Made by a program: the position numbers and the translations under genes
Part shown: positions 1 to 24,408 of the stretch, one piece after another
Layout: each line of letters starts with the position of its first letter
Numbering within the stretch: the stretch's first letter is position 1
Assembly (NCBI GenBank): GCA_944364615.1
Contig: CALVWF010000006.1
Location: forward strand, 51,603 to 115,602
Length of the DNA stretch: 64,000 nucleotides
Reading direction: 5' to 3'
DNA from: an uncultured Clostridia bacterium
GTDB lineage: Bacteria > Bacillota > Clostridia > Christensenellales > CAG-314
Notes under the pieces: model-generated
Databases searched by the model: none
What the model saw: only the letters and a program-made list of their open reading frames with translations
Told to the model about the DNA's origin: nothing

Positions 1-481
1 TTGTAAGATAGTTTTTGCGCAGTACGGTAAGATAAAAAACGACATACTGCTTGTTGCTTCCCGCAATAAACGAGTTGAATTGCAGTTCCTTGTAACTTTT
101 GTACAACTTTTGCAGTTCGGTGGTCAGAGCCGTTTTTATTTTGTTGTTGCTCATTAAAGGCAACGCAACGTTGTCCATCGCAACGGCGTTGTCAGGCAAA
201 ACCACGTACACAGCCAAAGAGTTGGATGTCGGCAACGTGCTTATATACTGAGCAAAAATGTCTTTAAATTCCGTCAGAAATTCTTCGGAAAGAAAATGAT
301 TGGTGTAGGCAAAAGTATCAACGGTCGATTTGTTGAAATTGAGCCCGAACATGCGCATTATCTTGACCTGTTTCAACACGCCGTCAAACCCTACAACAAT
401 GTTCAAAGCGTGCTTGGACGGTGGAATCTGACGCAAATCGGCAAAGGAAAAATCCGAAACGGAAGATTGAAAAAGATTCAT
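1..481 (-). CDS. PilM-like pilus assembly protein (partial, C-terminus outside window)
   Basis: The reading frame is open from an ATG at 481 to the window edge, giving about 160 residues. A GAGGTG ribosome binding site lies just upstream of the ATG. Residues from about 85 (YVVLPDNAV, then LPLMSNNKIKTAL and a Tyr-containing helix) resemble the start of the second subdomain of PilM/ComM-type actin-like ATPases, which link the inner-membrane pilus platform to PilN in the cytoplasm. It follows a prepilin-like gene by 9 bp and closes a run of pilin-type genes, which supports a role in pilus or pseudopilus assembly. The identification rests on weak sequence resemblance plus context. A different actin-fold protein is possible. 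Confidence 0.5.
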   Translation of the reverse strand, partial: MNLFQSSVSDFSFADLRQIPPSKHALNIVVGFDGVLKQVKIMRMFGLNFNKSTVDTFAYTNHFLSEEFLTEFKDIFAQYISTLPTSNSLAVYVVLPDNAVAMDNVALPLMSNNKIKTALTTELQKLYKSYKELQFNSFIAGSNKQYVVFYLTVLRKNYLT

Positions 482-490
482 CTTGACACC

Positions 491-1024
491 TCACTTAAAT
501 ACAATAAGACACAGAAACTGCAACTGCGAAACAGGACAGTTTATTTCAAACCGCACCGATCCCGAAACGTTGGCAACGTTGTCGGGGTACGCGACAATGT
601 CGATTTCGCTGACTGTTGTGCAGTCTACGTAAACGTAGTTGAATTGTCCGACCGTTTCGCCGTGGTAAATGCTTTCGGGGTAACCGAACCGCAACTGCGG
701 AACAACATTTCCATCCACAACGGAAGTGACCAAAGTTACCGAATACACGGTACCGTCGGTGTGCGTGGCGGAAACTACCGCAGTACCGTCGGTAGAAAAC
801 GTGTAGTCCTGTTTGTCAAACGCCGAAAACCAGAAGTCCAGTTCTTCCCTGATGTCCAACGTTTCGGAATTTCTGACTACCGAGTAGTCGCTGTTTTCCA
901 CATTCCGCCCCATAAAAGAAACAAAGGTCAGCACAACGCCCGCCACCAACGCAAAAAGCGCAATGGCGATCATAAGTTCGTAAAGGGTAAACGCCCTTTT
1001 AAAATTGCCGTGACCTTTAAACAT
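491..1024 (-). CDS. Prepilin-like protein (minor pseudopilin)
   Basis: This protein of about 177 residues begins MFKGHGNFKR and then has the type IV prepilin signature AFTLYELM followed by a hydrophobic helix (IAIALFALVAGVVLTFVSF). Prepilin peptidase would cut before Phe, and Glu5 of the mature form is present. The start at 1024 was chosen because AAAGGAC lies 9-10 bases upstream; an upstream in-frame start would add 12 residues that do not look like a leader. The remainder is a small beta-rich domain typical of minor pilins (GspI/J or PilW/PilX type). It lies 9 bp upstream of the PilM-like gene and is probably co-transcribed with it. The exact pilin class is not determined. Confidence 0.75.
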   Translation of the reverse strand: MFKGHGNFKRAFTLYELMIAIALFALVAGVVLTFVSFMGRNVENSDYSVVRNSETLDIREELDFWFSAFDKQDYTFSTDGTAVVSATHTDGTVYSVTLVTSVVDGNVVPQLRFGYPESIYHGETVGQFNYVYVDCTTVSEIDIVAYPDNVANVSGSVRFEINCPVSQLQFLCLIVFK

Positions 1025-1110
1025 ACACAAACAGTCCTTTAAAAAATACTGATACCGCACAGATGTTCCGAACCGTGCCGAAACATTTGTCCGGTATCAT
1101 TGTACCACTT

Positions 1111-1152
1111 TTTAAAAAAAAGGGGAATACAAAGACGCCCCTTTTTTTTAAA
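1111..1152 (-). terminator. Rho-independent terminator after the 236-aa prepilin gene
   Basis: An eight-base A run plus GGGG (1114-1125) pairs with CCCC plus an eight-base T run (1138-1149). The loop is 12 nt and A/T runs sit on both sides, so the hairpin would work on either strand. It lies between the prepilin gene ending at 1180 and the one starting at 1024, which suggests separate transcription of the downstream pair. Confidence 0.65.
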
Positions 1153-1179
1153 AATGTTAAGTTTTTAATACGATATTTA

Positions 1180-1890
1180 TTATACTCCAGGGTTGGGTTC
1201 AGGATCAGGTTCAGCAACAACAGTCAATGTAAGACCGTTTGCGGGGATGTTATTATCCTCTGTAGCCTCGCTGTCATAAGCGGAGATACCCGTATACGGT
1301 GCGTACAGTGCGCCTTCCAGTACAAATTCAGTAGGTTTTTCAGTAATATTGATTACAAAGTAACCTGCATATGCAGTTTCGTTTACTGTAATATTGTAGA
1401 CATACAGAGCATACGTTTCTTTGAGTTTTTCCCCATTGGGTTGGCCCTGTTGAGGAGTTTCAAGTACGAAATCTGTACCCTCAGTGTCTGCTCCGACTTT
1501 AATATTGAGTTTGGTAGCAGCTGTAAGACCTTCGCCGGCAATTCCTTGAAGTTCGCCTATATCTACAGCTCCGCTTTTCAATACAGCAACGTTTGCATTG
1601 CCGGACAATGTGCCGAGTGTTTGCAATTGATTGTTGATGTAAACAAATGCGTAGCCGTCACTTACAAATACCATACCGGTAAGATTGTCATTATTGGGAT
1701 CGTCGTCAGTTATTGACTGAGAAATATAATCAGTCATTGCGTTGTGGCATACTTGCATTGCTGCAGATTGCTTTGCGCTTGCAACAACGTTGCTGAATGT
1801 AGGAATAAGTACGGCTGCCAGAATTGCGATGACAGCAATTACAATTACCAATTCTGTAATGGTAAATGCATTCTTTTTCTTGTTGAGCAT
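1180..1890 (-). CDS. Prepilin-like protein, 236 aa
   Basis: The N-terminus MLNKKKNAFTITELVIVI is a short basic leader, a cleavage site with Ala at -1, and the Glu5 hydrophobic helix of type IV pilins and type II secretion pseudopilins. AAGGAGA precedes the ATG. The pilin helix runs to about residue 45. A globular part of about 190 residues follows and ends in a Pro/Asp/Glu tail (EPDPEPNPGV). The protein would be processed by a prepilin peptidase that is not in this window and assembled into an envelope fibre. It is larger than a typical major pilin (about 150 aa). Its leader closely matches those of the larger prepilins at 2018-3946, 4019-6022 and 7311-8894. Confidence 0.8.
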   Translation of the reverse strand: MLNKKKNAFTITELVIVIAVIAILAAVLIPTFSNVVASAKQSAAMQVCHNAMTDYISQSITDDDPNNDNLTGMVFVSDGYAFVYINNQLQTLGTLSGNANVAVLKSGAVDIGELQGIAGEGLTAATKLNIKVGADTEGTDFVLETPQQGQPNGEKLKETYALYVYNITVNETAYAGYFVINITEKPTEFVLEGALYAPYTGISAYDSEATEDNNIPANGLTLTVVAEPDPEPNPGV

Positions 1891-2017
1891 TTTACAATAT
1901 TCTCCTTTTAAAAATTTGTTTTTTTATTTCACGAACAAAGTCCGCAAATGTCAATTCAATCAAACTTTTCTGCTACTGGAATTCAGAAGCAGAAAAGCAA
2001 CGATTTTTAACGCTTGA

Positions 2018-3946
2018 CTATTCTGCCTTTTGCAAAATAACTGCCCAATTCATCCAACCTATTCTCGGTTTCTCGTATCTTTCGACAGCAACCCCGTCAA
2101 CGGTAAGATTTTCGATAACCAGATTTATTCCGTTCAAAGAAGATGTCAATTTCAAAAATTCTGTAGGAATAACGTTTTTGTCTGTTCCCAATTCCGTCTT
2201 TCCCGTAAGGCTGAAATAAACTCCGTCCACCTTCCATTTGATTTTGTCTTTATCCACCCACGTATTGATAGTTTCACAGTTTACGATGTTAATCTTGGTA
2301 AATTTTACCGTTTCAGCCGTAGCGGCAATATCCGTCGTCATATGCGAACAAAGTATACCGGCATGAGAGTCACCGGAATTTGGATCAAGTTCTGTAAGAT
2401 TACGGTTTGCTGTTACTTTAACATTTTCAAGCGAAACGTTATCTACAATAGCGGCGCTGTTCTGACCGCTTATTGCAATAATGCCGGCAACTTTTCTTTG
2501 TCCGTAAACTTCAAGATTTTTAACAGACGAATCGGTAATTTTAACTGTATGCGTTGCACTGAATTTTCCGTATGCACGGCCAACAATACCCGCCACAGCG
2601 TCATAGCCTTTTATGTAGCCCACTTCACCATTTTCATTGGCACCGTCAATATGAATATTGTCGAACTCTGCATCTCCAAGTACACAGCCGGCAATAATTC
2701 CTGCGGAGTCGGTAATGGACAGTATTCCCGACTTACCGTCAACTGTAATAGTTCTTTCGTTCAGGTCCAATCTGACATCTTTTACGTTAATATTAGAAAT
2801 TTTTACGGTTTCGCCTGCTTTGGCTATAACAGTCCCGAACAGTCCGTAAGAGTAGTTATATGCACCCTGCGGATATTCATTGTCGTCTTCTGTCTGATAT
2901 TGTGCTCCCTGCGGAACAAATTGAGCATCCAATTCGTAGCCTGTGATGGTAACGCCACCAAAGTCAACGGAAAAGCCGGAAGGAACATTGCCCGTTACAA
3001 CGTCACGGTGCGTAGCGGAAATTGCTGTAGGCGACACTTCGCTGAAACTGACCTCTACCTTTTTAAGACTGTCTCCGCCTTTACCAAACACTACTTTTTT
3101 ACCCGCAAGTTTTTCTGCCGTACTGTCTTCATTGGACATCGTAGACAGCGTTGCCATTGTTGCACGCATTACCTGTGCCTGCTGTTCAACAGTAACCGTT
3201 CCGCCACCTTCTATCGTCGCTCCGACTTTGGGCATTTCAAGACTGATTACGTTTGAATTGATTGTCTGAGTTTCAATGTCTGTTGCTATCGTTTCCGAAT
3301 ATGTATAACCCAACTTCTGATTATTGATTGCGGCAACAATCGTGTTTCCCCACATCTTATCCGTAACTTTATCTGCAAGGTCACCGTATTTACCCGAGAA
3401 AGACGTCTGGAACTTTGTTATATCTCCACCCGACATTACATAGAAGTCGTAGTAAACTCCTGCAATATACGGACCGTCGCTTTCTCCGATTGTGCACAGC
3501 AGGTAACCCTTAGATTTTTGCTGTCCGGATTTATCAAAGACATTTACGCCGTTGCCAAGACCGAAATCCGCCGTAAACGATACATTATATTGCTCGTCTG
3601 ACGAAGAAATCAGCGTAACGAAGTTGGCATTTTCATACCATATAAGATACATATTATCCTGCTTTAATGCAGTAGCAAGCAAGAACGGATTTGTCGTGTC
3701 GGTAAGTCCTTGTTGAGACAAAGCCAACATCAAATCGTCGTATGTTTCGGGGGCTTTGCCTGTTTCCGCTTTATACACTGACAATGCCGTATTTAAATTT
3801 TCGACCAGTTGCATGTCGTGCGACTTCTTAGAATTGTCTATTACTTCCGAGAAAGTAGGAATCAGGATTGCTGCCAGAATGGCAATTACTGCTATTACCA
3901 CAACCAGTTCGGTAATGGTAAACGCCTTTTTGTTCTTTGGGATCAT
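2018..3946 (-). CDS. Giant prepilin-like protein A, 642 aa, with repetitive C-terminal domain
   Basis: The leader MIPKNKKAFTITELVVVI gives a type IV prepilin cleavage site with Ala at -1, and AAGGAGA precedes the ATG. Residues 1-45 form the pilin helix. Residues to about 290 form a module that is nucleotide-identical to the neighbouring gene over 849 bp. From about residue 330 the sequence has repeating beta-strand blocks with GLUG-like glycine motifs (AGIVGRAYGK, VAGIIAISG), suggesting a beta-helix or adhesin-like domain. At 642 residues it is about four times a normal pilin. It is probably a surface-exposed tip or minor subunit of the fibre. Function and ligand are unknown. Duplication of this gene is described under findings. 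Confidence 0.75.
   Translation of the reverse strand: MIPKNKKAFTITELVVVIAVIAILAAILIPTFSEVIDNSKKSHDMQLVENLNTALSVYKAETGKAPETYDDLMLALSQQGLTDTTNPFLLATALKQDNMYLIWYENANFVTLISSSDEQYNVSFTADFGLGNGVNVFDKSGQQKSKGYLLCTIGESDGPYIAGVYYDFYVMSGGDITKFQTSFSGKYGDLADKVTDKMWGNTIVAAINNQKLGYTYSETIATDIETQTINSNVISLEMPKVGATIEGGGTVTVEQQAQVMRATMATLSTMSNEDSTAEKLAGKKVVFGKGGDSLKKVEVSFSEVSPTAISATHRDVVTGNVPSGFSVDFGGVTITGYELDAQFVPQGAQYQTEDDNEYPQGAYNYSYGLFGTVIAKAGETVKISNINVKDVRLDLNERTITVDGKSGILSITDSAGIIAGCVLGDAEFDNIHIDGANENGEVGYIKGYDAVAGIVGRAYGKFSATHTVKITDSSVKNLEVYGQRKVAGIIAISGQNSAAIVDNVSLENVKVTANRNLTELDPNSGDSHAGILCSHMTTDIAATAETVKFTKINIVNCETINTWVDKDKIKWKVDGVYFSLTGKTELGTDKNVIPTEFLKLTSSLNGINLVIENLTVDGVAVERYEKPRIGWMNWAVILQKAE
3083..3931. 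repeat. 849-bp direct repeat, copy 1
   Basis: No nucleotide difference was seen against 5153-6001 (offset 2070). It covers roughly codons 6-288 of giant prepilin A. Just past 3082 toward the 3' end of the genes, scattered mismatches appear, and beyond about 2940 the two genes are clearly diverged. Confidence 0.9.
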
Positions 3947-4018
3947 AACTCAATCTCCTTATCTTAACATATACAGTCTTGGATCAAACCAAACCGTGTG
4001 TATGTGCGAATATAAATT

Positions 4019-6022
4019 TTAATTTGCACTTGCCGTCAAAATTATTACTTTTGCCCCGCCGTACGCTAATCCCGGACTGGTAGTCCATGTTTTATTGATA
4101 GCAACTCCGTCAATGACGAGATTTGTTATAGTGAATGTTGCCCCATTGTCGGTAGACAATTCGCTGATGAGTTTGAGGAAATTGCTGTTACTCAAAGGTA
4201 CACTTCCGGTATTTCCCGGAACGTTTGCTCCTGCATGAACACTACTGGGCTTATACTCGGTCGTACCGTCTTCTGAATAGTAAAGACCTCCATCCTGCCA
4301 TATAGGTGTAGAATCAGCACCGGAAACGGGAACATAGTTATTTACGCATGTACATCCGTTAATTGTAATGTCTTTCCATTGTGCATCACTTTTGACCACT
4401 CCGAAACCGCCTACAATACCGGCAATAGAAACCTTTCTGTCGCCTGCAGTATCGCCCTCAACATTTCTCGAAGCACTTACATTGACATTGGTGAGAGAAG
4501 CACCGTCAATCGTAATTGTACCGTTCGACGAGTGAATACCGAACAAGCCCCCGGCACGACGCTGTCCGATTATATCGAGATTACTTACATTGCAGTTTTT
4601 CAACTCAACTACAGGATATGGATTAGTTCCTTCTTTCGAGTAAGCACGACCTACAATCGCGGCAGGACTGTCGTAAGCCTTAATATAGCCGTTTGATCCG
4701 TCTGCCTGTTTGCCGTCTATAGTTATATTCTCAAATACGGCATCGCCTAATACACACCCTGCTACAACTGCTGCCGAGTCTGTAATTGTAGGAACGCCCT
4801 CCTTGCCGTCAACAGTAATTGTTCTACCGTTTAGATCAAGACAAACGTCTTTGATCGTAAGATTGGATATTGTTACCTTTTCTCCGTTCTTTACTATTAT
4901 AGTTCCAAACAGTCCGTAAGAGTAGTTGTATGCACCGTTGGGGAAGTTGTTATCATCATTTGTCTGGAATTGTGCACCTTGAGGGGCAAATTGAGCATCC
5001 AATTCGTAGCCTGTGATGGTAACGCCACCAAAGTCAACGGAAAAGCCGGAAGGAACATTGGCCGTTACAACGTCACGGTGCGTAGCGGAAATTGCTGTAG
5101 GCGACACTTCGCTGAAACTGACCTCTACGTCTTTAAGACTTTCTCCGCCTTCACCAAACACTACTTTTTTACCCGCAAGTTTTTCTGCCGTACTGTCTTC
5201 ATTGGACATCGTAGACAGCGTTGCCATTGTTGCACGCATTACCTGTGCCTGCTGTTCAACAGTAACCGTTCCGCCACCTTCTATCGTCGCTCCGACTTTG
5301 GGCATTTCAAGACTGATTACGTTTGAATTGATTGTCTGAGTTTCAATGTCTGTTGCTATCGTTTCCGAATATGTATAACCCAACTTCTGATTATTGATTG
5401 CGGCAACAATCGTGTTTCCCCACATCTTATCCGTAACTTTATCTGCAAGGTCACCGTATTTACCCGAGAAAGACGTCTGGAACTTTGTTATATCTCCACC
5501 CGACATTACATAGAAGTCGTAGTAAACTCCTGCAATATACGGACCGTCGCTTTCTCCGATTGTGCACAGCAGGTAACCCTTAGATTTTTGCTGTCCGGAT
5601 TTATCAAAGACATTTACGCCGTTGCCAAGACCGAAATCCGCCGTAAACGATACATTATATTGCTCGTCTGACGAAGAAATCAGCGTAACGAAGTTGGCAT
5701 TTTCATACCATATAAGATACATATTATCCTGCTTTAATGCAGTAGCAAGCAAGAACGGATTTGTCGTGTCGGTAAGTCCTTGTTGAGACAAAGCCAACAT
5801 CAAATCGTCGTATGTTTCGGGGGCTTTGCCTGTTTCCGCTTTATACACTGACAATGCCGTATTTAAATTTTCGACCAGTTGCATGTCGTGCGACTTCTTA
5901 GAATTGTCTATTACTTCCGAGAAAGTAGGAATCAGGATTGCTGCCAGAATGGCAATTACTGCTATTACCACAACCAGTTCGGTAATGGTAAACGCCTTTT
6001 TAGAACGAAAACGGTTGTACAT
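4019..6022 (-). CDS. Giant prepilin-like protein B, 667 aa, with repetitive C-terminal domain
   Basis: The start at 6022 (MYNRFRSKKAFTITELV) was chosen because GGAGG lies 5-6 bases upstream. An in-frame ATG at 6034 overlaps that ribosome binding site and is unlikely. The pilin helix and the next 240 residues are identical at DNA level to giant prepilin A. The C-terminal half is homologous but diverged, and it again has glycine-centred beta repeats (AAVVAGCVLG, AAIVGRAYSK, IAGIVGGFGV). It differs from A mainly in the inserts and in the last 100 residues. The gene lies 72 bp upstream of A in the same orientation, so A and B look like a tandem duplication with homogenised 5' halves and variable 3' halves. 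The substrate or ligand is unknown. Confidence 0.75.
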   Translation of the reverse strand: MYNRFRSKKAFTITELVVVIAVIAILAAILIPTFSEVIDNSKKSHDMQLVENLNTALSVYKAETGKAPETYDDLMLALSQQGLTDTTNPFLLATALKQDNMYLIWYENANFVTLISSSDEQYNVSFTADFGLGNGVNVFDKSGQQKSKGYLLCTIGESDGPYIAGVYYDFYVMSGGDITKFQTSFSGKYGDLADKVTDKMWGNTIVAAINNQKLGYTYSETIATDIETQTINSNVISLEMPKVGATIEGGGTVTVEQQAQVMRATMATLSTMSNEDSTAEKLAGKKVVFGEGGESLKDVEVSFSEVSPTAISATHRDVVTANVPSGFSVDFGGVTITGYELDAQFAPQGAQFQTNDDNNFPNGAYNYSYGLFGTIIVKNGEKVTISNLTIKDVCLDLNGRTITVDGKEGVPTITDSAAVVAGCVLGDAVFENITIDGKQADGSNGYIKAYDSPAAIVGRAYSKEGTNPYPVVELKNCNVSNLDIIGQRRAGGLFGIHSSNGTITIDGASLTNVNVSASRNVEGDTAGDRKVSIAGIVGGFGVVKSDAQWKDITINGCTCVNNYVPVSGADSTPIWQDGGLYYSEDGTTEYKPSSVHAGANVPGNTGSVPLSNSNFLKLISELSTDNGATFTITNLVIDGVAINKTWTTSPGLAYGGAKVIILTASAN
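5153..6001. repeat. 849-bp direct repeat, copy 2
   Basis: Identical, as far as can be read, to 3083-3931. It includes the prepilin helix and the shared N-terminal module of giant prepilin B. Confidence 0.9.
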
Positions 6023-6060
6023 AATATCCTCCATGTTTGATTATCTGTATTTAAAGTTGT

Positions 6061-6825
6061 TTAAGCCTCTTTCTTGGCCTTGCGCAATTCTTTCTTGCGC
6101 TGTTTGCGATACGCCTGTTCTTCCTTGATCTGCGCTACAGTGATATCCACGGTCTGTTTGGCAAGTTCAAGATCGGCAGATGTTTCAAGACGCACCACAA
6201 CGGGGTTTATCTTGATGTTTTTAATGCCCTCTTCCTTGACGAACCTGTTTAAATCGCTGTTGAACAACATAAAGTTCAAAACCACTACACCGCGGCGAAT
6301 AGACGCACGCATTACCTTGTCGGTAGCAATCTTGAAAGTTTCGGCAGTAGACGAACGGCTGACCTTGGCTTTGTCGTGAGCAAGTATATACATGCTCAGC
6401 TGACTGTACATGTTGCGTGTTCCCTCGGGCAGATTGTCGTATTTGTCGGCAAAAGTCTTGCTCTCCTTGCCGGTAGCCTGGAACATTACGCTGTCTTCGG
6501 TAATTTCGCCGTACTTGTTGACAAAGTCGTCGATTGTTTCCTGATCGGCAGGCATCTGTTCCACAACAGGTTGCTGCTGAGGCTCCGCTGCTGTTTCCGC
6601 CACGGTTGCCGCGGGAAGATCCTGAACGATTTCTATCTTGCCGTCCTTGACTTTAAGATAAACGTCGTCGGACTCTTCGATCCTCATTCCTTTTCCGGCA
6701 TTGATTTTTTCGGAAACGGCTTTTTTCTTGCCTTCTTTAAGTCGCGATTCTATTGCCCACAGTACGATTGCGCCCAGCAACAGTACCACAAACACGCAAC
6801 TTATAACAATGTAAAAAACATCCAT
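6061..6825 (-). CDS. Membrane-anchored protein of unknown function, 254 aa
   Basis: I do not recognise a family. The start is the ATG at 6825, preceded by an AGGGGGG ribosome binding site. Residues 1-28 are one transmembrane helix (MDVFYIVISCVFVVLLLGAI). After a basic stretch and a Val/Gln/Pro/Glu-rich linker comes a cytoplasmic or extracellular alpha/beta domain of about 140 residues, and the protein ends in a highly basic helix (KQRKKELRKAKKEA). It sits between the prepilin genes and immediately downstream of a second small single-helix protein, in one transcription unit. This suggests an accessory envelope component of the pilus system. Confidence 0.6.
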   Translation of the reverse strand: MDVFYIVISCVFVVLLLGAIVLWAIESRLKEGKKKAVSEKINAGKGMRIEESDDVYLKVKDGKIEIVQDLPAATVAETAAEPQQQPVVEQMPADQETIDDFVNKYGEITEDSVMFQATGKESKTFADKYDNLPEGTRNMYSQLSMYILAHDKAKVSRSSTAETFKIATDKVMRASIRRGVVVLNFMLFNSDLNRFVKEEGIKNIKINPVVVRLETSADLELAKQTVDITVAQIKEEQAYRKQRKKELRKAKKEA

Positions 6826-6842
6826 AGTCTGGGCCCCCCTGT

Positions 6843-7070
6843 TTACTTGCTGACAAGTTCGACGTTGTCGCTGTTGACGTCCACACATTCAATGCGGACG
6901 GTCTTGCCATCCTGAACAATATCCAGCAGATACTGTTCGCTTTGCTCGATTTGCTGTACTTCCTGTTTGGATTGGTCAATGCGCTTTTTCATTTCGACGG
7001 CCTTGTAGACAACAGCCGCAAGCAAGGCAGCCGCAAGCAGAGAACTGACCACAATGATTACAACTTCCAT
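6843..7070 (-). CDS. Small single-span membrane protein, 75 aa
   Basis: The ATG at 7070 has AAGGAGA upstream. Residues 1-24 form a transmembrane helix (MEVVIIVVSSLLAAALLAAV), followed by a polar, probably coiled-coil segment rich in Lys, Gln and Glu (KKRIDQSKQEVQQIEQSEQ) and a short acidic tail. It ends 17 bp before the next membrane-anchored gene, so the two are probably translated from one message. There is no recognisable family. The architecture would fit a small scaffold protein. Confidence 0.55.
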   Translation of the reverse strand: MEVVIIVVSSLLAAALLAAVVYKAVEMKKRIDQSKQEVQQIEQSEQYLLDIVQDGKTVRIECVDVNSDNVELVSK

Positions 7071-7310
7071 ACCAACACTCTCCTTAAATATTTCGCTGTA
7101 CGTTTGTAAAAAAAAACGCGTTGAATATTGCGAAAAACACCGCAATACCACTAAATGTTACTGTAATATCAGTTTAGCACCAATACAGTGTCACGTCAAT
7201 ACCTTTTTTGAAATTTATTATAATTATTATAATAAGCAACGCATTGAACTGTTTTTTTTGTAAAAGTATTTTACGTATTATGCTTTCATTGATTTTGCGC
7301 CTTGCCAAGA

Positions 7311-8894
7311 TTAATTTTCGGATTTAGTTACTATGTAAGTAAATTCATCCGATGTAGGACCGTCTTGTCTAACAGCCTCGTGGCCATCAGCCACAAAATT
7401 CGCAACAGGATTTTCCGTTGTGCTTGCTGCGGGATTATATTTATCAAACGTTCCACCGTAAACATTAATCTTCGCATTTGTGTTATCTTGCAGATTCAAA
7501 AGCCAATAACCGCTACCGTAAGTAGCCATTGCTGTAAAATAACCGCCATAAATTTCACACACTGAATCGCCATCTGCCAATACGCATGTGAGTCCGCTTT
7601 TGAATGTTCCAGATTTCAACACAAGTTTGCTATTTTCGTTTGTTTCAAACATACGACCGTTAGAAGCACCGTCTATATAAGCCTGATCGAAATCAAACGT
7701 TCCGTTGCCGTCTATCGTCAATTGGGCAGAACCCATCAACACAATGTAACCAGCAGTATAAGACGTTGTAGCCGAATAAGTTACCGTGTGTCCGTTCATG
7801 TCGAGAAACCTTCTGCAATTAGAATCTCCACCCAACTTTAAAACTACCGTCAACGTGATGTCTTTTATTAATTTATAGTAACTGTCGCCGTCAACTACTT
7901 GCTTCATTCTTAACAGTTGCGCTTGGTTTTCAATGAGATACGGACTTGTCGCAGTGCCAACTCCTCCGGCAAATAAACTCATTGCTTCGCTGTCTGCTAC
8001 GTCGGTCATCACGTTTTCGGTTCCGGTTACAACTGTACTCAAGTTCTCTGCCACTATAGCATCTGTTGCCACTACGGTTGTATTATTATCACTGTTATCA
8101 ATAACAGCTATGGTATCGGCAGTAAAGTTTTCAGCAGTTGTAGTAATTACGACAGCTGGAACTTTTGCCTGACTTTCAAGAACCACCCTTCCTTGCGCAA
8201 TACTAAGATTGCCGAGTACCACGCCGAATTCATGATACGACTGAGATGCAACAGCCGTAATTTCAACAAGGGTTGCTGTGCCGTAGTGAGACACATTACT
8301 TTGTGGTCCATCAATGGTGAGAGTACCGCCGTTTGTGTTAAAAATCACTTCTCGGGCGTCGTTCGCAGAATATAAAATTGAAATATTTTGGTTATCACCT
8401 ACATCAATACCCGTAGAAACGGCCAAACCGGTTGCCGGTATTGCAGAGACATCTATAGCCGAAAGAAAGTAACTATATTCGCCCGTCGATGTTTCTTCAA
8501 CATTATCTGTTATTTTCCAAAATTTGTAACCCAGTTCGGATTTGGTTGCGGAATCTTTATAAACAAAATTTCCGTCTTTAACTAATGCAAACCTGTTAGA
8601 CACCTGGTCCCATACAATGTCCCCGTTTGAAACAGGAGTAAGATTTTCCACAGAATACCCTTCGCTTAATGCGACTTTCAGGACATCCTGCATTGTTGTA
8701 GGTTTTCCGTTCAACGTTTCGTCAGCATACAGCGCCGTATTAATGTTTCTAACGACTGATGTATCAGACGATACATTTGCCTGTTCGATGACATTTGAAA
8801 AAGTAGGAATAAGTATTGCTGCAAGAATTGCAACTACTGCTATTACAATCACGAGTTCGGTGATTGTAAATGCTTTGCGGTGTTTGATGCTCAT
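7311..8894 (-). CDS. Giant prepilin-like protein C, 527 aa
   Basis: The start at 8894 (MSIKHRKAFTITELVIVI) was chosen because AGAGGT lies about 10 bases upstream and a typical short basic leader follows. The longer frame would add 33 atypical residues. The pilin helix is followed by an alpha/beta segment and then a C-terminal region with GVGTATSPYLI, a motif common before beta-helix repeats in surface proteins, and repeated short strands (KLVLKSGTFKSG, IYGGYFTAMA). It is separated from the 75-aa gene by about 240 bp, so it may have its own promoter. It is only distantly similar to proteins A and B outside the leader. It is probably a fibre subunit with a displayed domain of unknown ligand. 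Confidence 0.7.
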   Translation of the reverse strand: MSIKHRKAFTITELVIVIAVVAILAAILIPTFSNVIEQANVSSDTSVVRNINTALYADETLNGKPTTMQDVLKVALSEGYSVENLTPVSNGDIVWDQVSNRFALVKDGNFVYKDSATKSELGYKFWKITDNVEETSTGEYSYFLSAIDVSAIPATGLAVSTGIDVGDNQNISILYSANDAREVIFNTNGGTLTIDGPQSNVSHYGTATLVEITAVASQSYHEFGVVLGNLSIAQGRVVLESQAKVPAVVITTTAENFTADTIAVIDNSDNNTTVVATDAIVAENLSTVVTGTENVMTDVADSEAMSLFAGGVGTATSPYLIENQAQLLRMKQVVDGDSYYKLIKDITLTVVLKLGGDSNCRRFLDMNGHTVTYSATTSYTAGYIVLMGSAQLTIDGNGTFDFDQAYIDGASNGRMFETNENSKLVLKSGTFKSGLTCVLADGDSVCEIYGGYFTAMATYGSGYWLLNLQDNTNAKINVYGGTFDKYNPAASTTENPVANFVADGHEAVRQDGPTSDEFTYIVTKSEN

Positions 8895-9628
8895 TTTTAA
8901 ACTGACCTCTGAAAATACTGTTTTTAACAACTCTGACGATTTTACCGCAGTAACGGGAGCGGAACAAGGCTCAATTTGTCCACAATCTTGCACTGAAAAT
9001 GTTTCGTCTTTGTTGTTTTAACAAATTTTAACACTATAACAAACTATTGTCAATATATTTACGTTATTTTTTGTCGATTTTTTGATTTTTTAAAGCGCGA
9101 AACTTGCCGTACGTCGGGCATTTTCGGGGGGGGGGGGGGGTAAAGGGCCGGTTTTTTTAGCCCGTAAAAACGCCTTAAAACGGCTTATTTTGCCACTTTT
9201 TCCCCTGTTGTTTTCGGCGTTTCGGCGCTTTTTTTTCGGCTGTTTCGATTTCAAACCGTACTCCGCGTCGTCACCAACAAACAAAAGTGCGTTTACAGCG
9301 CCAATTTTTTCCGTCGCGGCTTTCTTGCCGACCGCAATACTCTCTTAAAGCAAGACGTTCATTTTTACACATCGACACCGCCCCTATATACTATATATAT
9401 AGCGCGGTAGTTTTATTAACATATCTTAACGTTTTAAAGGTTCTGAAACCGAAAATCATGCGTAAGCGCTTGCCGACCGGACGATCCACAATTACTCAAG
9501 GAATATTTTCACGTTCAGGCAAAAACGGAAAAGACCTTATTTTCCGCAAATAAGGTCCTGTCGTTATATTTTAAATTATTATCTTGTATATCTTGTCCTC
9601 GCAAATAAACCGAAAATGTGCCGTTTCG
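8895..9628. other. Intergenic stretch upstream of the pilin locus
   Basis: No credible gene. It contains a 15-base G run at 9126-9140, a short alternating TA tract near 9390-9402, and the guaA terminator at 9533-9557. A minus-strand frame crossing the G run (9090-9284) starts at TTG with no ribosome binding site and is not called. Confidence 0.6.
9533..9557 (-). terminator. guaA terminator
   Basis: GACCTTATTT (9533-9542) pairs with AAATAAGGTC (9548-9557) around a 5-nt loop. On the minus strand it is followed by TTTTCC and TTTTT. It lies about 70 bp past the guaA stop. Confidence 0.7.
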
Positions 9629-18594: not shown

Positions 18595-18625
18595 AAAGCC
18601 GTTGTTTGCAACGGCTTTTTTTATT
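18595..18625 (+). terminator. Terminator of the CvpA-family gene
   Basis: AAAGCCGTTG (18595-18604), a 4-nt loop, CAACGGCTTT (18609-18618), then a T run. Confidence 0.9.
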
Positions 18626-20082
18626 TGCCGTTTTTCGGCAGTAGCACGAATCTGACTTCCGAGGGAAACGTCGCAACAGAGGAAACAACACCGTTTCCTT
18701 TTATTTTATAAAACTTTTCTCAACTTTTTACACAGAACTTTAATCTCACTATTTAACGTTAGACGAAATTGCAAGTTGTATTTCGTCTAAAGCACGTCAA
18801 CAGCGATTTGATTTTACCGCCACAACTGAAAAGGTGACTTTAACGTTTACGGCTATTCTTTACCGTAACAATGCTGACTTTGCGGCAATACGCAAATACG
18901 CCCGTTAAAACGTGCGTGTCGGCCGATTATTTGAGACGCCTTGGTAGTATTGAGCGTTAATTTTATCGCACAACGGCTTTATTAGGGCGCCACAGACGTG
19001 AACTTAAATAAATGCGGAATAATGTTTACAGACGCTAACAAATGCTATATTTATGTTATTAAATAAGGTATGCCTGCAAATGCATTTATTATTTGGAATC
19101 GAATTGTACAAATATTTACTTGTGTTAAATTAAATTTTGTTTGTTTTAAACAAAACACCTTTAACGCCGTGTGTTATACTTATGTTATTTGATTTTACTT
19201 TAATCAGATTACTTAATATTGGACAATTAACTATTTTAAAATTTTCAAATCCTGATTTTCCATCTGCGCATTTATTTCTGTTAGCGTTACTGTTTAGGCA
19301 AACGCTTTCGGTGCACATAGTATATATAATTAAATTTACGTTGCGCAACGACAGAATCATTGCGACAGGGTAAATGATAGCAGTTGCGACCGACAGGCAG
19401 AACAGAGCCTTGTTGATGATGAGACCCGCTACCCGATTTAGCAGTTTTCTTTACCATATAAAATTCCTACCTATAACGATTTAGGGCATTGAATTAAATT
19501 TGCCTGCACTAAGCCCGTTTCGCTATTCTAATTAATAAATACTCAACATTTAACACCTGCATTACGAGTGTGCCAATCTGTTCCGCCAATTCAATCGAAT
19601 AAATGTACTGCAACGATTAAAAACGGTATTAAATTCAGACATTAAAAGGACAGTAAAATATCAGATTCATATTTATACGGCATTATTTGTTTTACCGAAC
19701 CGCCAATTTGTGTGATCTGTCATTCAATATATTTGCGTTTTGCGCTCAACCGCTTAAAATTATAGATCGAATGTGTAATTATTTTGCCGACAACTAAACA
19801 GTTAAACGGATTTAAAACGCTTTTCTCGTCTTTTTGCATTAAAGAACCGCCGTCGCACAATATTTTCCGACAGATTTAAATGCTTGGCGGGGTTTCGCTT
19901 ACCCCTGCCACGTAAAATTACGGCAAAAGCGCTTAAAAATCCCTGTTCGCAACTAAACAAATTTAAAATAGCAAAAAAAAGTCTTTTCAGTAAATACATC
20001 TTTGGAACACACTACGCAATTAATTAAAACGCGTATTCCCAAGCAAATTTTATCCATGGAAATGACTCGCAATAAAATATGT

Positions 20083-20098
20083 TGTTTCACGTGAAACA
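20083..20098. promoter_or_regulatory. parS: parS site 1
   Basis: TGTTTCACGTGAAACA, a perfect 16-bp palindrome identical to the Bacillus-type parS consensus bound by ParB. Confidence 0.95.
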
Positions 20099-20194
20099 AA
20101 CTACTTTGAGTTTTTATGTCTACGAATTGTTTATGCGTGATTTCAAATTCTGTATTTGCAACAATAGGCTGTTAGTAAAGCGGAACTGTTTAGG

Positions 20195-20210
20195 CGTTTC
20201 ACGTGAAACA
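20195..20210. promoter_or_regulatory. parS: parS site 2
   Basis: CGTTTCACGTGAAACA, one outer mismatch from consensus. Centre 112 bp from site 1. Confidence 0.93.
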
Positions 20211-20290
20211 TCTTTACTTTATAAATCATACAGTGACGGCGTTTGGTCAACCTCTTCCCCATATACCGCCGAACAGTGCACAAACATCAG

Positions 20291-20306
20291 CGTTTCACGT
20301 GAAACA
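20291..20306. promoter_or_regulatory. parS: parS site 3
   Basis: CGTTTCACGTGAAACA, with the same outer mismatch as site 2. Centre 96 bp from site 2. Confidence 0.93.
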
Positions 20307-20348
20307 GTAAAGAACCGTAGGCAAAACTTTTTGCCCGCAAACCACTGC

Positions 20349-20364
20349 TGTTTCACGTGAAACC
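20349..20364. promoter_or_regulatory. parS: parS site 4
   Basis: TGTTTCACGTGAAACC, one outer mismatch. Centre 58 bp from site 3. Confidence 0.93.
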
Positions 20365-21830
20365 ACTATATAAATTCAAACAAACTGCACGTTAATCCCC
20401 CGAATCGTGCTACACCATAATTAACCTGCTCAGCCATCAATCTACTTACCAGAGGTCTTAAAATCAAAACAAGACACGCAAAAACATACAAAAATACGGT
20501 TCACAAGCGACTATTTACGGTCGGCACATGTGAAATCAATGCAAAAATACACTAAAACGCTTATTTTATAACTATTAATTAAGGCGACATGTAGCCGCTT
20601 ACCGCTTATAGAAACAAGAAAAATGAGTCCTTGATTACTACGGAAAATTTTAATAAGTCATATATCTTATTTCCATGAAAACTTTGGACAAGAAAGAGGC
20701 AAACAGAAAGCAAATGTTTTTCAATAGTTAAAAATTACTAAACCAAGCAAGACACGTTTTCCCGATAAACACGCTTGCACACATTTTACAGACACGTCTG
20801 AAGGTAAAAATCTTTTTAAAACGACATAACAAAACCACACAACCGAACATTCGGCAGCAGATTTGCACCACCAACAACTGTCGACATTGCCTTATTTGTC
20901 CATAAACATCAGCGAACAAATTTCATTTTAGTTAAAGAAAATATACGTCCGTTATGTTCACTATTCAGACAGATTAACGCTAAAAGTAAACGGAAATTTT
21001 ACACGATTTAATAAAAATTCTGTCAGAATGCCTGTTTCAGCCAGTCTAAAAATCGCAAATTTATTAAAATGGTCGCATTTTACATTAAATTTAAATTATT
21101 TTAAATATAATTAAAGCAAAATTGATATGCAATCCCTGTCTTTTACAATATCTTAAATATCAATTTTAAGCAATGAAATGGCTGGAAATATATTGTTTTT
21201 ATAATATATACTGTACATTTGCACATTTTTCAGAGGTTGTACTACTAAAATCGACTTCAAACTACGAAAAACCCGTCAGTTTAAACCACCTCAGCAAAAG
21301 TTATGTTTACTTCGGCAAATAGAAATCAACAAAATTTTACAGGAAGGCGCTCGGCAGTAAACAGTCAGAATACAGATCACCGCAACAAAATACTATTTTA
21401 TTGCACGTTGGCACATCAAAAGCCAAGTGATATTCATAAAAAAAGCACTAAAACAAACTTTTTACAAAAAAAAATAAAGAAGTTATTGATTAAATAAGAT
21501 AAAAAACAAGAAAAACAACCGCACTTACAAGTCGAAACACACGTTCACAAACAAATTTACGCAAAATCCGGCAAGAAATTCGCTAAAAACCATATAAACA
21601 TACAGTAAAATTAAGCTATAAAGGCAATAAACCAAGCAAAACATCCGTTTTTAAGCCCAAAAAACGCAATCAAACACCGATAAATAAAGGCAAAACAGCG
21701 AAAACGAAGCAAAACTTGCAGATTTTAAGCATAAACTCGCTAAAACCACAAAAAATCGAGCATATTTATAAAATTTTCGAGCATTTTTCCTTGAAAATTA
21801 TCAAATTTGTAACATTTTAAAATGTTATAA

Positions 21831-22560
21831 AATTCGACAGAAATTCCGACAGTTTTTTCAATTCTTATTTTTATATAAATTGCCGTAAATAGGCAATTTA
21901 CGACAAATAATTGTTAGACTTAACAATGGCGTTAAGTATTAACATTTATAGATGAAAATTGCCCCAAACAGGCAGTTAAACAGAAATCGGACAGACAAGT
22001 TCGATGCAAAATGTATTAAAACCAAGTAACTGTCAGACACGACACAACTTTAAGAAGGCAAACTCCCCTGCGAAAACGGCAGATAAAGTAGTCAGATAGT
22101 GTGAAAAACTGATTTTTAAACGAAAATTTCGACAGTAAATTTGTTGCAATAGCCCTATTCACGGGACAATTCGTAAAATTAACAATCGCTTTAACATAAG
22201 CGTTAAGAACAAAAACAAGCACATCGCGCACAACAACTCGGAAGGAGCAGTCAAATAGTTCCAAAAAACGGCAAAAACAGTTAACACAAATTTCGACAGT
22301 AATTTTGACATAAAAAACCATCACACGGTCGATTTCGACAAATTAAGTATGAAGTTAAGCATAAGCACTTATTTAAATCGTAAATTTTTATTTTAAAACG
22401 TGCTTTTATACTAAAATACGCTGATACTCAGGTTTGAATGTTCGGCAAAACAATTAATTGCTTTAATTCTTATTTTGACTGAAAATTTAACATTGATTTT
22501 TACAAAATTGCCCGCAATACGACCAATTTCGACAAATTAACAATCGCATTAACATCGGCA
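21831..22560. repeat. Degenerate interspersed repeat family in the parS region
   Basis: Four related segments begin near 21890, 22160, 22325 and 22520. They share a core close to TTTCGACAAATTAACAATCG followed by CNTTAACAT. Copies 1, 2 and 4 are preceded by an AAATTGCC-like block, and a TTTCGACAG motif recurs near 21834, 22128 and 22291. Copies are imperfect and unevenly spaced by about 170-270 bp. No frame is conserved through them. Confidence 0.5.
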
Positions 22561-22895
22561 AAAAGTGTCAGACAACCTTTATTTCACTGTTTTTTGCGCA
22601 AAACATTTTCCATGGCATTTCACTTGCAATAATATTTTGCCAACAGCAAATCACACAACGTAACCGCTTTGCTTTGTCGAAAAACTTCACACAAGTACCA
22701 CATGCTCAGACCCAACTTTGTTTGACGGCAGGTAAATACAAAATATACGGCACGTTACTAAACATTTGATGTTTTAACGCCCAATATAGCCCCCAAATCG
22801 CTTGATAGAGTACACAGTTTCGCTCAAATCACAAAAATACGCAGTACGTTCCCAACTTAAAAGCTATATGACGCAAACTTTTCTGAAAATATTAC

Positions 22896-22909
22896 TACCA
22901 CACGTGGTA
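22896..22909. repeat. Short dyad TACCAC-AC-GTGGTA
   Basis: Six-base arms around a 2-bp centre, just beyond the terminator of the parAB-cvpA unit. It could be a protein-binding site, but nothing in the context identifies a partner. Confidence 0.3.
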
Positions 22910-22957
22910 CAAATTTTAGTTGAATTAGGTTCTTATAAGTGAATGTCTTAAATATTA

Positions 22958-22987
22958 AAAAAAATTACGGGCGCAATGAAGCGCCCG
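22958..22987 (-). terminator. Terminator of the parA-parB-cvpA unit
   Basis: CGGGCGC (22968-22974) and GCGCCCG (22981-22987) around a 6-nt loop, followed on the minus strand by TAATTTTTTTT. Confidence 0.85.
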
Positions 22988-23009
22988 CAACTTGTTTTAA
23001 ATTATCAGG

Positions 23010-23523: not shown

Positions 23524-24408
23524 TCAGTCTTCCTCCTTATAGAAACACTTTTCCATCCAATCTTCCACCAACTTGCACAGTCTGTCCAAGTCGTCAGCGG
23601 TGTAGTAATCTATAAAAATGCGCCCTTTATTGCCGTTTCCGACGGCGGAAACTTTGGTGGCAAAGGCACGTTGCATATTTCCGACAAGTTCTTTAAGTTC
23701 GAGATTGGGTTCTTCCTTAGGCTTTTCCGCCTTGGGGTTGAGAAACTCTCTTACCATTTTTTCCGCTTCACGGACATTCATCTTATTGTCGCAAGCCTTC
23801 AAAGCAAGTTTATACTGCGATTGTTTCGGAACAACGACCAGAGCCCGCGCATGTCCTGCGGAAAGCCTGTTTTGCTCAACAAGTTTCAACACGTCTTCGT
23901 CAAGAGTGAGCAAACGGAGAATATTGGCAACTGCCGAACGGCTTTTTCCTATACGGTCGGCTGCCATTTCCTGAGTCATATTGAATTCAGACATCAGTGT
24001 TTTTATTGCACGTCCCGCCTCAACAGGGTTGAGGTCTTCACGTTGAAGGTTCTCAATAATGCTGATTTCCTTTATCTGCTGAGGAGTGTAGTGTCTGATA
24101 AGGGCAGGTATCTGCGTTTTTCCCGCAAGTTTGGACGCTCTGAATCGTCTTTCGCCTGCAATTATCATGTATCTTCTGCCCATGGGTGTAACTACGATGG
24201 GCTGAATTACTCCGTGCACCTTGATACTCTCCGCCAACTCGGCAAGAGCCTGTTCGTCGAAATTTTTACGAGGTTGTTCGAAATTGGGGTCTATTTCCGC
24301 TATATCGAGCATCACCTCTCCGCCGGAAGATTGTTCGGAAGTGAGTTCTTCAACGTCGTTTAAACCCATCAACGAGGCAAAGCCGCGTCCTAATCCTTTG
24401 TTAGCCAT
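23524..24408 (-). CDS. parB: Chromosome-partitioning protein ParB/Spo0J
   Basis: This is a parS-binding CTPase clamp that loads around the origin and recruits SMC. Features are the MANKGLGRGF opening, the CTP-binding motif GERRFRA (85-91), the IENLQREDLNP block at about 118-128, the helix-turn-helix around MTQEMAADRIGKSRSAVAN, and a C-terminal dimerisation domain. The length of 294 aa is typical. The start overlaps the parA stop by one base (TAATG). Its likely targets are the four parS sites 3.2-3.4 kb away. Confidence 0.97.
   Translation of the reverse strand: MANKGLGRGFASLMGLNDVEELTSEQSSGGEVMLDIAEIDPNFEQPRKNFDEQALAELAESIKVHGVIQPIVVTPMGRRYMIIAGERRFRASKLAGKTQIPALIRHYTPQQIKEISIIENLQREDLNPVEAGRAIKTLMSEFNMTQEMAADRIGKSRSAVANILRLLTLDEDVLKLVEQNRLSAGHARALVVVPKQSQYKLALKACDNKMNVREAEKMVREFLNPKAEKPKEEPNLELKELVGNMQRAFATKVSAVGNGNKGRIFIDYYTADDLDRLCKLVEDWMEKCFYKEED

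What the first reader, a model, noticed from the sequence alone, without database searches (positions are those of the whole stretch)
2018..6034. Tandem giant prepilins with an identical 849-bp 5' module and diverged 3' modules
3083-3931 and 5153-6001 show no nucleotide difference, then identity falls within about 140 bp to a clearly diverged but homologous C-terminal beta-repeat region. A very recent duplication would leave both halves alike, so the pattern points to gene conversion or recombination that homogenises the pilin module while the displayed domain varies. It resembles the logic of pilin antigenic variation, here with 640-670-aa subunits.
Basis: partly seen in the sequence, partly recalled or inferred. 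Interest (0 to 1): 0.72.

Follow-up and report, generated by a model that had tools for sequence, protein, structure and literature searches.

The report
Twin giant pilins sharing one base
Two neighbouring genes for predicted, unusually large pilus subunits in a bacterium (likely an uncultured clostridium) are letter-for-letter identical over 849 bases and then differ strongly; recombination likely keeps copying the predicted filament-building half from one gene to the other while each keeps its own predicted surface head, and the same pattern recurs in other genomes.

Summary
Genes A (2018-3946) and B (4019-6034, start probably 6022) share an 849-bp run without one difference (3083-3931 / 5153-6001). 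The next 166 bp hold 5 differences, then identity drops to about 50%. The first 300 codons after the prepilin motif have 0 synonymous differences at about 203 sites, while most of the 3' half is saturated. A and B are old paralogs, not a fresh duplication: B's C half is nearer to a gene of another genome than to A. Across the few alleles from other assemblies there are 0 fixed A/B differences in 333 module columns but 155 in 296 C-half columns, with 5 shared polymorphisms in the module and none in the C half. The module therefore shows concerted evolution, best explained by gene conversion. The pattern recurs in two other genomes at DNA level (L077, L148) and in four more protein pairs with equal contig length. 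No silent cassettes, reverse transcriptase or long inverted repeats were found. I read it as different heads on one shared pilin base, not antigenic variation.

The parts
2018..3946 (-). gene A, 642-aa giant prepilin
   Evidence: PF07963 at 25.8 bits against cut-off 21.2; TIGR02532 at 21.8 against 16.3
4019..6034 (-). gene B, 671-aa giant prepilin (likely start 6022 behind GGAGG, 667 aa)
3083..3931 (-). identical 849-bp module in gene A
5153..6001 (-). identical 849-bp module in gene B; codes for the predicted pilin core (helix 17-68, strands to about 155) and a helical subdomain (164-286)
2917..3082 (-). near-identical transition in A (5 differences in 166 bp)
4987..5152 (-). near-identical transition in B
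2018..2916 (-). diverged 3' module of A (head homologous to B's predicted beta-helix)
   Evidence: no other copy in the genome beyond B
4019..4986 (-). diverged 3' module of B, predicted right-handed beta-helix (B residues 304-666)
1180..1890 (-). small prepilin directly downstream (236 aa)
491..1060 (-). minor prepilin (189 aa)
2..481 (-). start of a 473-aa ORF in the PilM position (by place; no Pfam hit); beyond the window follow PilD-, PilC- and PilB-type genes on the same strand
   Evidence: Peptidase_A24, T2SSF, T2SSE
6061..6888 (-). membrane-anchored protein upstream of B (by eye; no Pfam family over its cut-off); a similar ORF of about 280 aa precedes the giant prepilins in L049, L050 and L051
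7311..8993 (-). third giant prepilin (560 aa), not homogenised with A or B

Best explanation
A and B are two old tandem paralogs of a giant type IV prepilin whose shared 5' module is identical because gene conversion likely keeps copying it between them, while their 3' halves, which code for predicted beta-helix heads, have diverged and stay locus-specific in the strains seen. Shown by sequence: the 849-bp identity, zero synonymous change, largely saturated 3' halves, N and C halves with conflicting trees, no fixed A/B difference in the module among the alleles in hand, and the same pattern in other genomes. Inferred: the agent is ordinary RecA-type homologous recombination. Predicted: the module is the filament-forming pilin core plus a helical neck, and the C half is a right-handed beta-helix exposed on the pilus. 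Untested: that the shared module is kept matched so both subunits fit one filament, giving a heteropolymer that shows two different heads. New module variants would enter one gene from other strains and then spread to the partner gene, so the pilus base is strain-typed and the heads are not.
For: Exact tract and flanks. dS of 0 in the module and saturated in most of the C half. Old split: B's C half is 58.4% identical to P0007 and 42.2% to A, while the A and B modules are 100% identical to each other and 53.2% to P0007. Alleles: fixed A/B differences 0 of 250 columns (residues 39-288), 0 of 53 (289-341) and 155 of 296 (342-642); shared polymorphisms at 49, 146, 147, 291 and 298 and none in the C half. 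Second clade (7 alpha, 4 beta): the C tree separates alpha (98/98) and beta (100/99); on the N tree an alpha clade is rejected at p-AU 1.9e-48 and a beta clade at 2.3e-93. Structure. T4P gene cluster.
Against: Only one A allele besides the window's own is in hand (P0005), a 90%-cluster representative standing for 46 sequences, so allele counts are lower bounds. Its partner gene B was not seen, and its module differs from the window's, so that strain could hold unequal modules. That alpha and beta lie in one genome is inferred, and the 11 rows were picked because one search had shown N/C conflict, so the AU p-values are not unbiased. Homogenisation is not universal: 13 of 16 within-locus giant-prepilin pairs are under 90% in the first 100 residues, and 5 of 10 equal-contig pairs under 98% in the first 150; L049's own tandem pair is only 94, 80 and 72% identical in its first three 50-residue blocks. 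Of 10 proteins on five contigs, 3 (P0164, P0152, P0174) have their best module match off the contig. Short-read assembly can collapse near-identical repeats and inflate identity to 100%. Co-assembly, surface exposure and function are untested.
Confidence: 0.75

Rival explanations
1. Recent duplication of a 5' module, with one or both 3' halves replaced by recombination with foreign DNA (domain shuffling once, not recurrent conversion).
For: Also gives identical 5' and diverged 3' halves. In the L077-type family the C ends of contig mates are nearly unrelated (7-15%) and 28 proteins fall into 15 C types at a 40% threshold, so C-end import probably happens there.
Against: In the window's species both C types exist in other assemblies with module variants of their own, and polymorphisms are shared between loci. 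C orthologs at 97% sit on modules only 88% alike (P0168/P0172). A and B heads are homologous and old.
Confidence: 0.15
2. Pilin antigenic variation: an expressed gene is rewritten from variant copies, changing the displayed domain.
For: Pilin genes, recombination, a constant N part with a different C part; strain-level mosaicism of the module.
Against: Both genes are open from start to stop, each with its own leader and its own Shine-Dalgarno-like sequence. No further copies of the module or of A's C half in the assembled genome, no reverse transcriptase, no long inverted repeats. C halves are conserved in the few other-strain alleles.
Confidence: 0.05
3. Assembly artefact: repeat collapse or a mis-join made the two 5' halves look identical.
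For: The window's genome is a 14-contig assembly; reads were not available; an 849-bp repeat exceeds short reads. Other-strain fragments begin or end inside or near the module (P0003, P0004, P0006), as expected where assemblers break.
Against: Both heads recur on contigs of other lengths, so in other assemblies (P0001, P0002, P0005). The pattern recurs in other genomes, with small differences left in L148 and P0156/P0164. Collapse needs near-identity to begin with.
Confidence: 0.05
4. Strong purifying selection on the pilin module without any DNA exchange.
For: The module holds the conserved pilin helix.
Against: 0 synonymous differences at about 203 sites, while the same module is only about 53% identical in P0007 and varies among the window's near-relative alleles.
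Confidence: 0.01

Closest known systems
Streptococcus sanguinis PilE1/PilE2, two major pilins of a heteropolymeric type IV pilus (PMC10628169, PMC6497953: passages read)
   Same: Two paralogous pilins of a Gram-positive T4P with identical N-termini that co-polymerise; a mosaic surface is proposed.
   Different: PilE1 and PilE2 are small and 78% identical overall; here subunits are 640-670 aa with large predicted beta-helix heads. The main texts hold neither 'gene conversion' nor 'recombination'. Co-assembly here is untested.
Modular pilins such as S. sanguinis PilB (PMC8179133: passages read)
   Same: [quoted passage not shown] such pilins are reported widespread and diverse.
   Different: PilB is a single minor tip pilin; here there are tandem pairs with a recombination-matched pilin module.
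Haemophilus HMW1/HMW2 adhesins (PMC8262952, PMC4849778: passages read; the identical N-terminal parts are recalled)
   Same: Paralogous surface proteins with a common machinery-facing part and diverged binding domains; gene conversion is said to swap binding domains between loci.
   Different: Two-partner secreted adhesins, not pilins; exchange there moves the binding domain, here it moves the shared base.
Helicobacter pylori babA/babB (PMC5673166: passages read; concerted evolution seen only as a cited title there)
   Same: Duplicated surface-protein genes altered by gene conversion.
   Different: Outer-membrane adhesins (recalled), different layout.
Neisseria pilE/pilS antigenic variation (abstract starts in search listings; rest recalled)
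   Same: Pilin genes changed by gene conversion.
   Different: Silent copies feed one expressed gene there; none found here.
PilV shufflon of I-complex plasmids (PMC9045228: passages read)
   Same: Pilus subunit with a constant N part and exchangeable C parts.
   Different: Site-specific inversion by Rci at sfx sites; no long inverted repeats found here.

Membership tests
type IV prepilin (class III signal, N-methyl motif) | N-terminal prepilin motif above curated cut-off | tested here: met
   PF07963 25.8 and 21.5 bits against 21.2; TIGR02532 21.8 and 21.7 against 16.3
type IV prepilin (class III signal, N-methyl motif) | long N-terminal helix with a pilin-fold core | tested here: inconclusive
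   helix 17-68 and strands 105-155 are predicted (pLDDT 81, pTM 0.82), but Foldseek hits to pilins are weak (1ay2, E 0.3) and the VIA rows span only the C-terminal part
type IV pilus system | assembly ATPase, platform protein and prepilin peptidase in the same gene cluster | tested here: met
   T2SSE, T2SSF and Peptidase_A24 in L033 on the same strand as A and B
concerted evolution of paralogs by gene conversion | paralogs more alike than orthologs in the exchanged part, and not elsewhere | tested here: met
   within one genome at DNA level for the window, L077 and L148
concerted evolution of paralogs by gene conversion | observed transfer event in one lineage | not testable with these tools
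   no clonal time series or reads
heteropolymeric T4P (PilE1/PilE2 kind) | both subunits in one filament | not testable with these tools
   needs purified pili
pilE/pilS antigenic variation | silent partial copies in the genome | tested here: not met
   (assembly 93% complete)
pilE/pilS antigenic variation | displayed region varies within a lineage | tested here: inconclusive
   C halves conserved in the few alleles seen; no clonal sample
diversity-generating retroelement | reverse transcriptase | tested here: not met
   PF00078: 0 matches in own genome; the control rang in 3 of 14 genomes
shufflon | inverted recombination repeats in the variable segment | tested here: not met
   none of 25 nt or more in 1-9000; 3 imperfect pairs of 14-18 nt in 1800-6300
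shufflon | Rci-type tyrosine recombinase next to the gene | not tested
   no search made
beta-helix of the M26 IgA1-protease kind | right-handed parallel beta-helix like that of IgA1 proteases | tested here: met
   [not shown]

The most novel reading that the evidence does not exclude
A class of clostridial pili, seen in several genomes, is built from two or more giant subunits that share one strain-specific base. The base carries a type (in the second clade, a helical neck of about 120 residues with two classes only about half identical) that moves between strains by recombination and is then copied into the partner gene of the genome, while the beta-helix heads are fixed per locus. The pilus would work as a typed scaffold bearing matched but different adhesive heads, and concerted evolution would enforce assembly compatibility or self-recognition.
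Probability: 0.4. Interest if true: 0.8.

Novelty: new variant of a known kind. Interest (0 to 1): 0.62.

Why it matters
It turns an odd pair of genes into a testable rule: subunits that share a machine keep their machine-facing half identical by recombination, while the outward half diverges. It suggests heteropolymeric giant pili in uncultured Clostridia; the listings showed no paper on the pili of this group (the one paper listed that holds both 'Christensenellales' and 'type IV pili' speaks of pili in another lineage). It also warns that such pairs may break or mislead short-read assemblies and that trees of whole pilin genes mix two histories. If the module is a strain type, it is a candidate receptor or recognition site.

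Tried and rejected
Recent duplication: rejected by allele data and the old split of C halves. Purifying selection alone: rejected by dS. Silent cassettes, reverse transcriptase, long inverted repeats: not found. Viral carriage: a viral-contig scan gave only two matches, both to the prepilin N-terminus; plasmid and phage collections were not searched. Defence families: none in the 3 proteins scanned. A first genome-contig scan with B alone found nothing; the alignment reached 241 relatives, of which the best 80 were kept as 77 loci. Full-length relatives are rare: 2 of 396 order genomes (G000 and G370) have a match over nearly the whole model, and 4 of 396 any match at 1e-30. A hunt for a genome carrying both alpha and beta failed (1 of 395 at 1e-60, only G370, which has one copy). 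AU tests naming winA could not run because rows are identical (searches stopped there); a third planned AU test was therefore not run. Foldseek alone gave no PDB hit at E 0.001 or better; the beta-helix statement rests on VIA-align. A second model, of an L077-type protein, has pLDDT 80.5 and pTM 0.69; it was not searched further. A DnaA-box-like pattern in the window was at chance level (2 found, 2.8 expected).
Full report
What is there. Genes A (2018-3946, 642 aa) and B (4019-6034, 671 aa; likely start 6022) lie in tandem on the minus strand. Their longest common run is 849 bp, at 3083-3931 and 5153-6001, exactly as reported. It starts 15 nt into A and 33 nt into the longer form of B, so the leader starts, Shine-Dalgarno regions and upstream flanks are different. 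The next 166 bp hold 5 differences; after that identity falls to about 50% with indels. Codon by codon, the first 300 codons after the prepilin motif have 0 synonymous differences at about 203 sites and 4 nonsynonymous ones. Four of the five blocks beyond codon 360 have dS of 1.5 or more, or are saturated; the last has 0.90.

Setting. The window lies in a 1.69-Mb genome of 14 contigs, 93% complete. Its same-genus relative G001 has contigs of 106,144 and 112,067 bp, the lengths of two records of Candidatus Limihabitans stercoravium that carry the same matches, so the window is probably a Limihabitans species (Clostridia); this is inferred. Downstream of A, on the same strand and partly beyond the window, come a small prepilin, minor pilins, a 473-aa ORF in the PilM position (no Pfam hit), and proteins with Peptidase_A24, T2SSF and T2SSE domains. 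A and B therefore sit near the head of a type IV pilus cluster. In related loci the place before the small prepilin holds one giant prepilin (L050, L051) or two (L049).

Old paralogs, young module. A and B modules are 100% identical over residues 39-288, and their C halves 42.2%. The homologue P0007, from another genome (L049 holds a near copy), is 53.2% identical to both modules, but its C half is 58.4% identical to B and 38.2% to A; the C tree also joins B with P0007 and P0008 before A, with moderate support (83/87). So the A/B split is probably older than the B/P0007 split, and identical modules cannot date from the duplication.

Alleles. Searches of 5.8 billion proteins with B and with A returned B alleles P0001-P0004 and P0006 and one A allele, P0005. 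P0005 has no substitution against A in residues 342-642 and one 3-residue insertion, but 26 substitutions in 39-341, 16 of them in 114-147. Between locus A {A, P0005} and locus B {B, P0001-P0004, P0006} there are 0 fixed differences in 30 columns (9-38), 0 in 250 (39-288), 0 in 53 (289-341) and 155 in 296 (342-642). Five sites (49, 146, 147, 291, 298) are polymorphic for the same residues in both loci, against none in the C half. Shared polymorphism with no fixed difference is the mark of repeated exchange. The rows are 90%-cluster representatives, three are fragments, and P0005 stands for 46 sequences unseen here.

A second clade says the same. Eleven homologues form two C types, alpha (7) and beta (4), separated at 98/98 and 100/99 on the C tree. 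On the module tree they intermix; holding alpha or beta together is rejected (p-AU 1.9e-48 and 2.3e-93). I picked these rows because one search had shown the conflict, so the p-values describe it rather than test it blind. Fixed alpha/beta differences: 1 in 256 module columns (39-288), 5 in 54 (289-341) and 123 in 279 C columns. P0045 and P0048 have 100% identical C halves, yet their helical subdomains are 49% identical, and the two subdomain classes occur on both alpha and beta heads. That alpha and beta share genomes is an inference; a search of 395 order genomes found no carrier beyond G370.

How general. Among 127 prepilin ORFs of 150 aa or more in the loci then held, 25 pairs had at least 78% identity in the first 240 nt. 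Among 16 within-locus pairs of 400 aa or more, 3 reach 90% identity in the first 100 residues: the window, L077 (556-bp exact run) and L148 (two genes 13.5 kb apart); L090 and L049 are weaker (87 of 100 each) and 11 are lower. A protein search with the L077 gene (best 120 of 3070 listed) gave 10 pairs with equal contig length on 8 contigs, where 0.16 would be expected by chance; for one of them, L077, the shared contig is known. Of these 10, 5 have at least 148 of the first 150 residues identical with C ends mostly a quarter or less identical (one is L077 itself), 1 has 141 of 150, and 4 about 100 of 150. In that family C-half orthologs at 97% identity carry modules only 88% alike (P0168/P0172), while contig mates with C ends 15% alike carry modules 99% alike (P0150/P0168). 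For 7 of 10 proteins on five contigs the mate is the best module match; P0164, P0152 and P0174 are the exceptions. The three other giant prepilins examined in the window's genome are not homogenised with A or B, so exchange is partner-specific.

Mechanism. The evidence fits recurrent gene conversion (homologous recombination; agent inferred) confined to the pilin module. Why it is kept is not shown. My preferred reason is assembly: both subunits enter the same machine and perhaps the same filament, so their packing surfaces must match. S. sanguinis PilE1 and PilE2 give precedent for two co-polymerising pilins with identical N-termini (passages of PMC10628169 and PMC6497953). Modular pilins with grafted adhesive domains are known (passages of PMC8179133), and gene conversion between paralogous adhesins is known (passage of PMC8262952). 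In the listings, most of them cut to their top rows, I saw no report of giant pilin pairs whose base is homogenised within genomes and varies between strains.

Limits. No reads, no DNA for the other strains, possible repeat collapse, few alleles, and no experiment. Exposure, co-assembly and ligand binding of the heads are predictions.

Noticed in passing
window 18600-23000: A 4.4-kb stretch with no ORF of 150 aa or more and low GC (0.33-0.41 in 2-kb bins), holding four parS-like 16-mers at 20083-20364 (one exact, three with one mismatch; 0.04 expected) near a ParB-like ORF (23524-24408, named by eye); perhaps a chromosome-partition or origin region. parS and ParB labels are recalled.
   Followed up: partly
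window 3053-3082 and 5123-5152 (A residues 289-298): A small patch just past the identical tract is unusually polymorphic among alleles (sites 289, 291, 292, 296, 298); the 60-codon block around it has 4 nonsynonymous and 0 synonymous differences between A and B.
   Followed up: no
window 7311-8993: A third giant prepilin (560 aa) that by eye belongs to the same sequence family as the L077 pair; it is not homogenised with A or B.
   Followed up: partly
L148 3391-5616 and 16877-19117: In a same-family genome two giant prepilins 13.5 kb apart share about 500 bp at 98-100%, diverge, and come closer again near the 3' end; a 2057-codon ORF precedes the second.
   Followed up: partly
L087 16836-17391 and L111 13251-14067: Two prepilin ORFs of one genome (JAFSVU) are cut by locus ends and share about 500 nt at 95-99%, as if the assembly broke at a shared repeat.
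   Followed up: no
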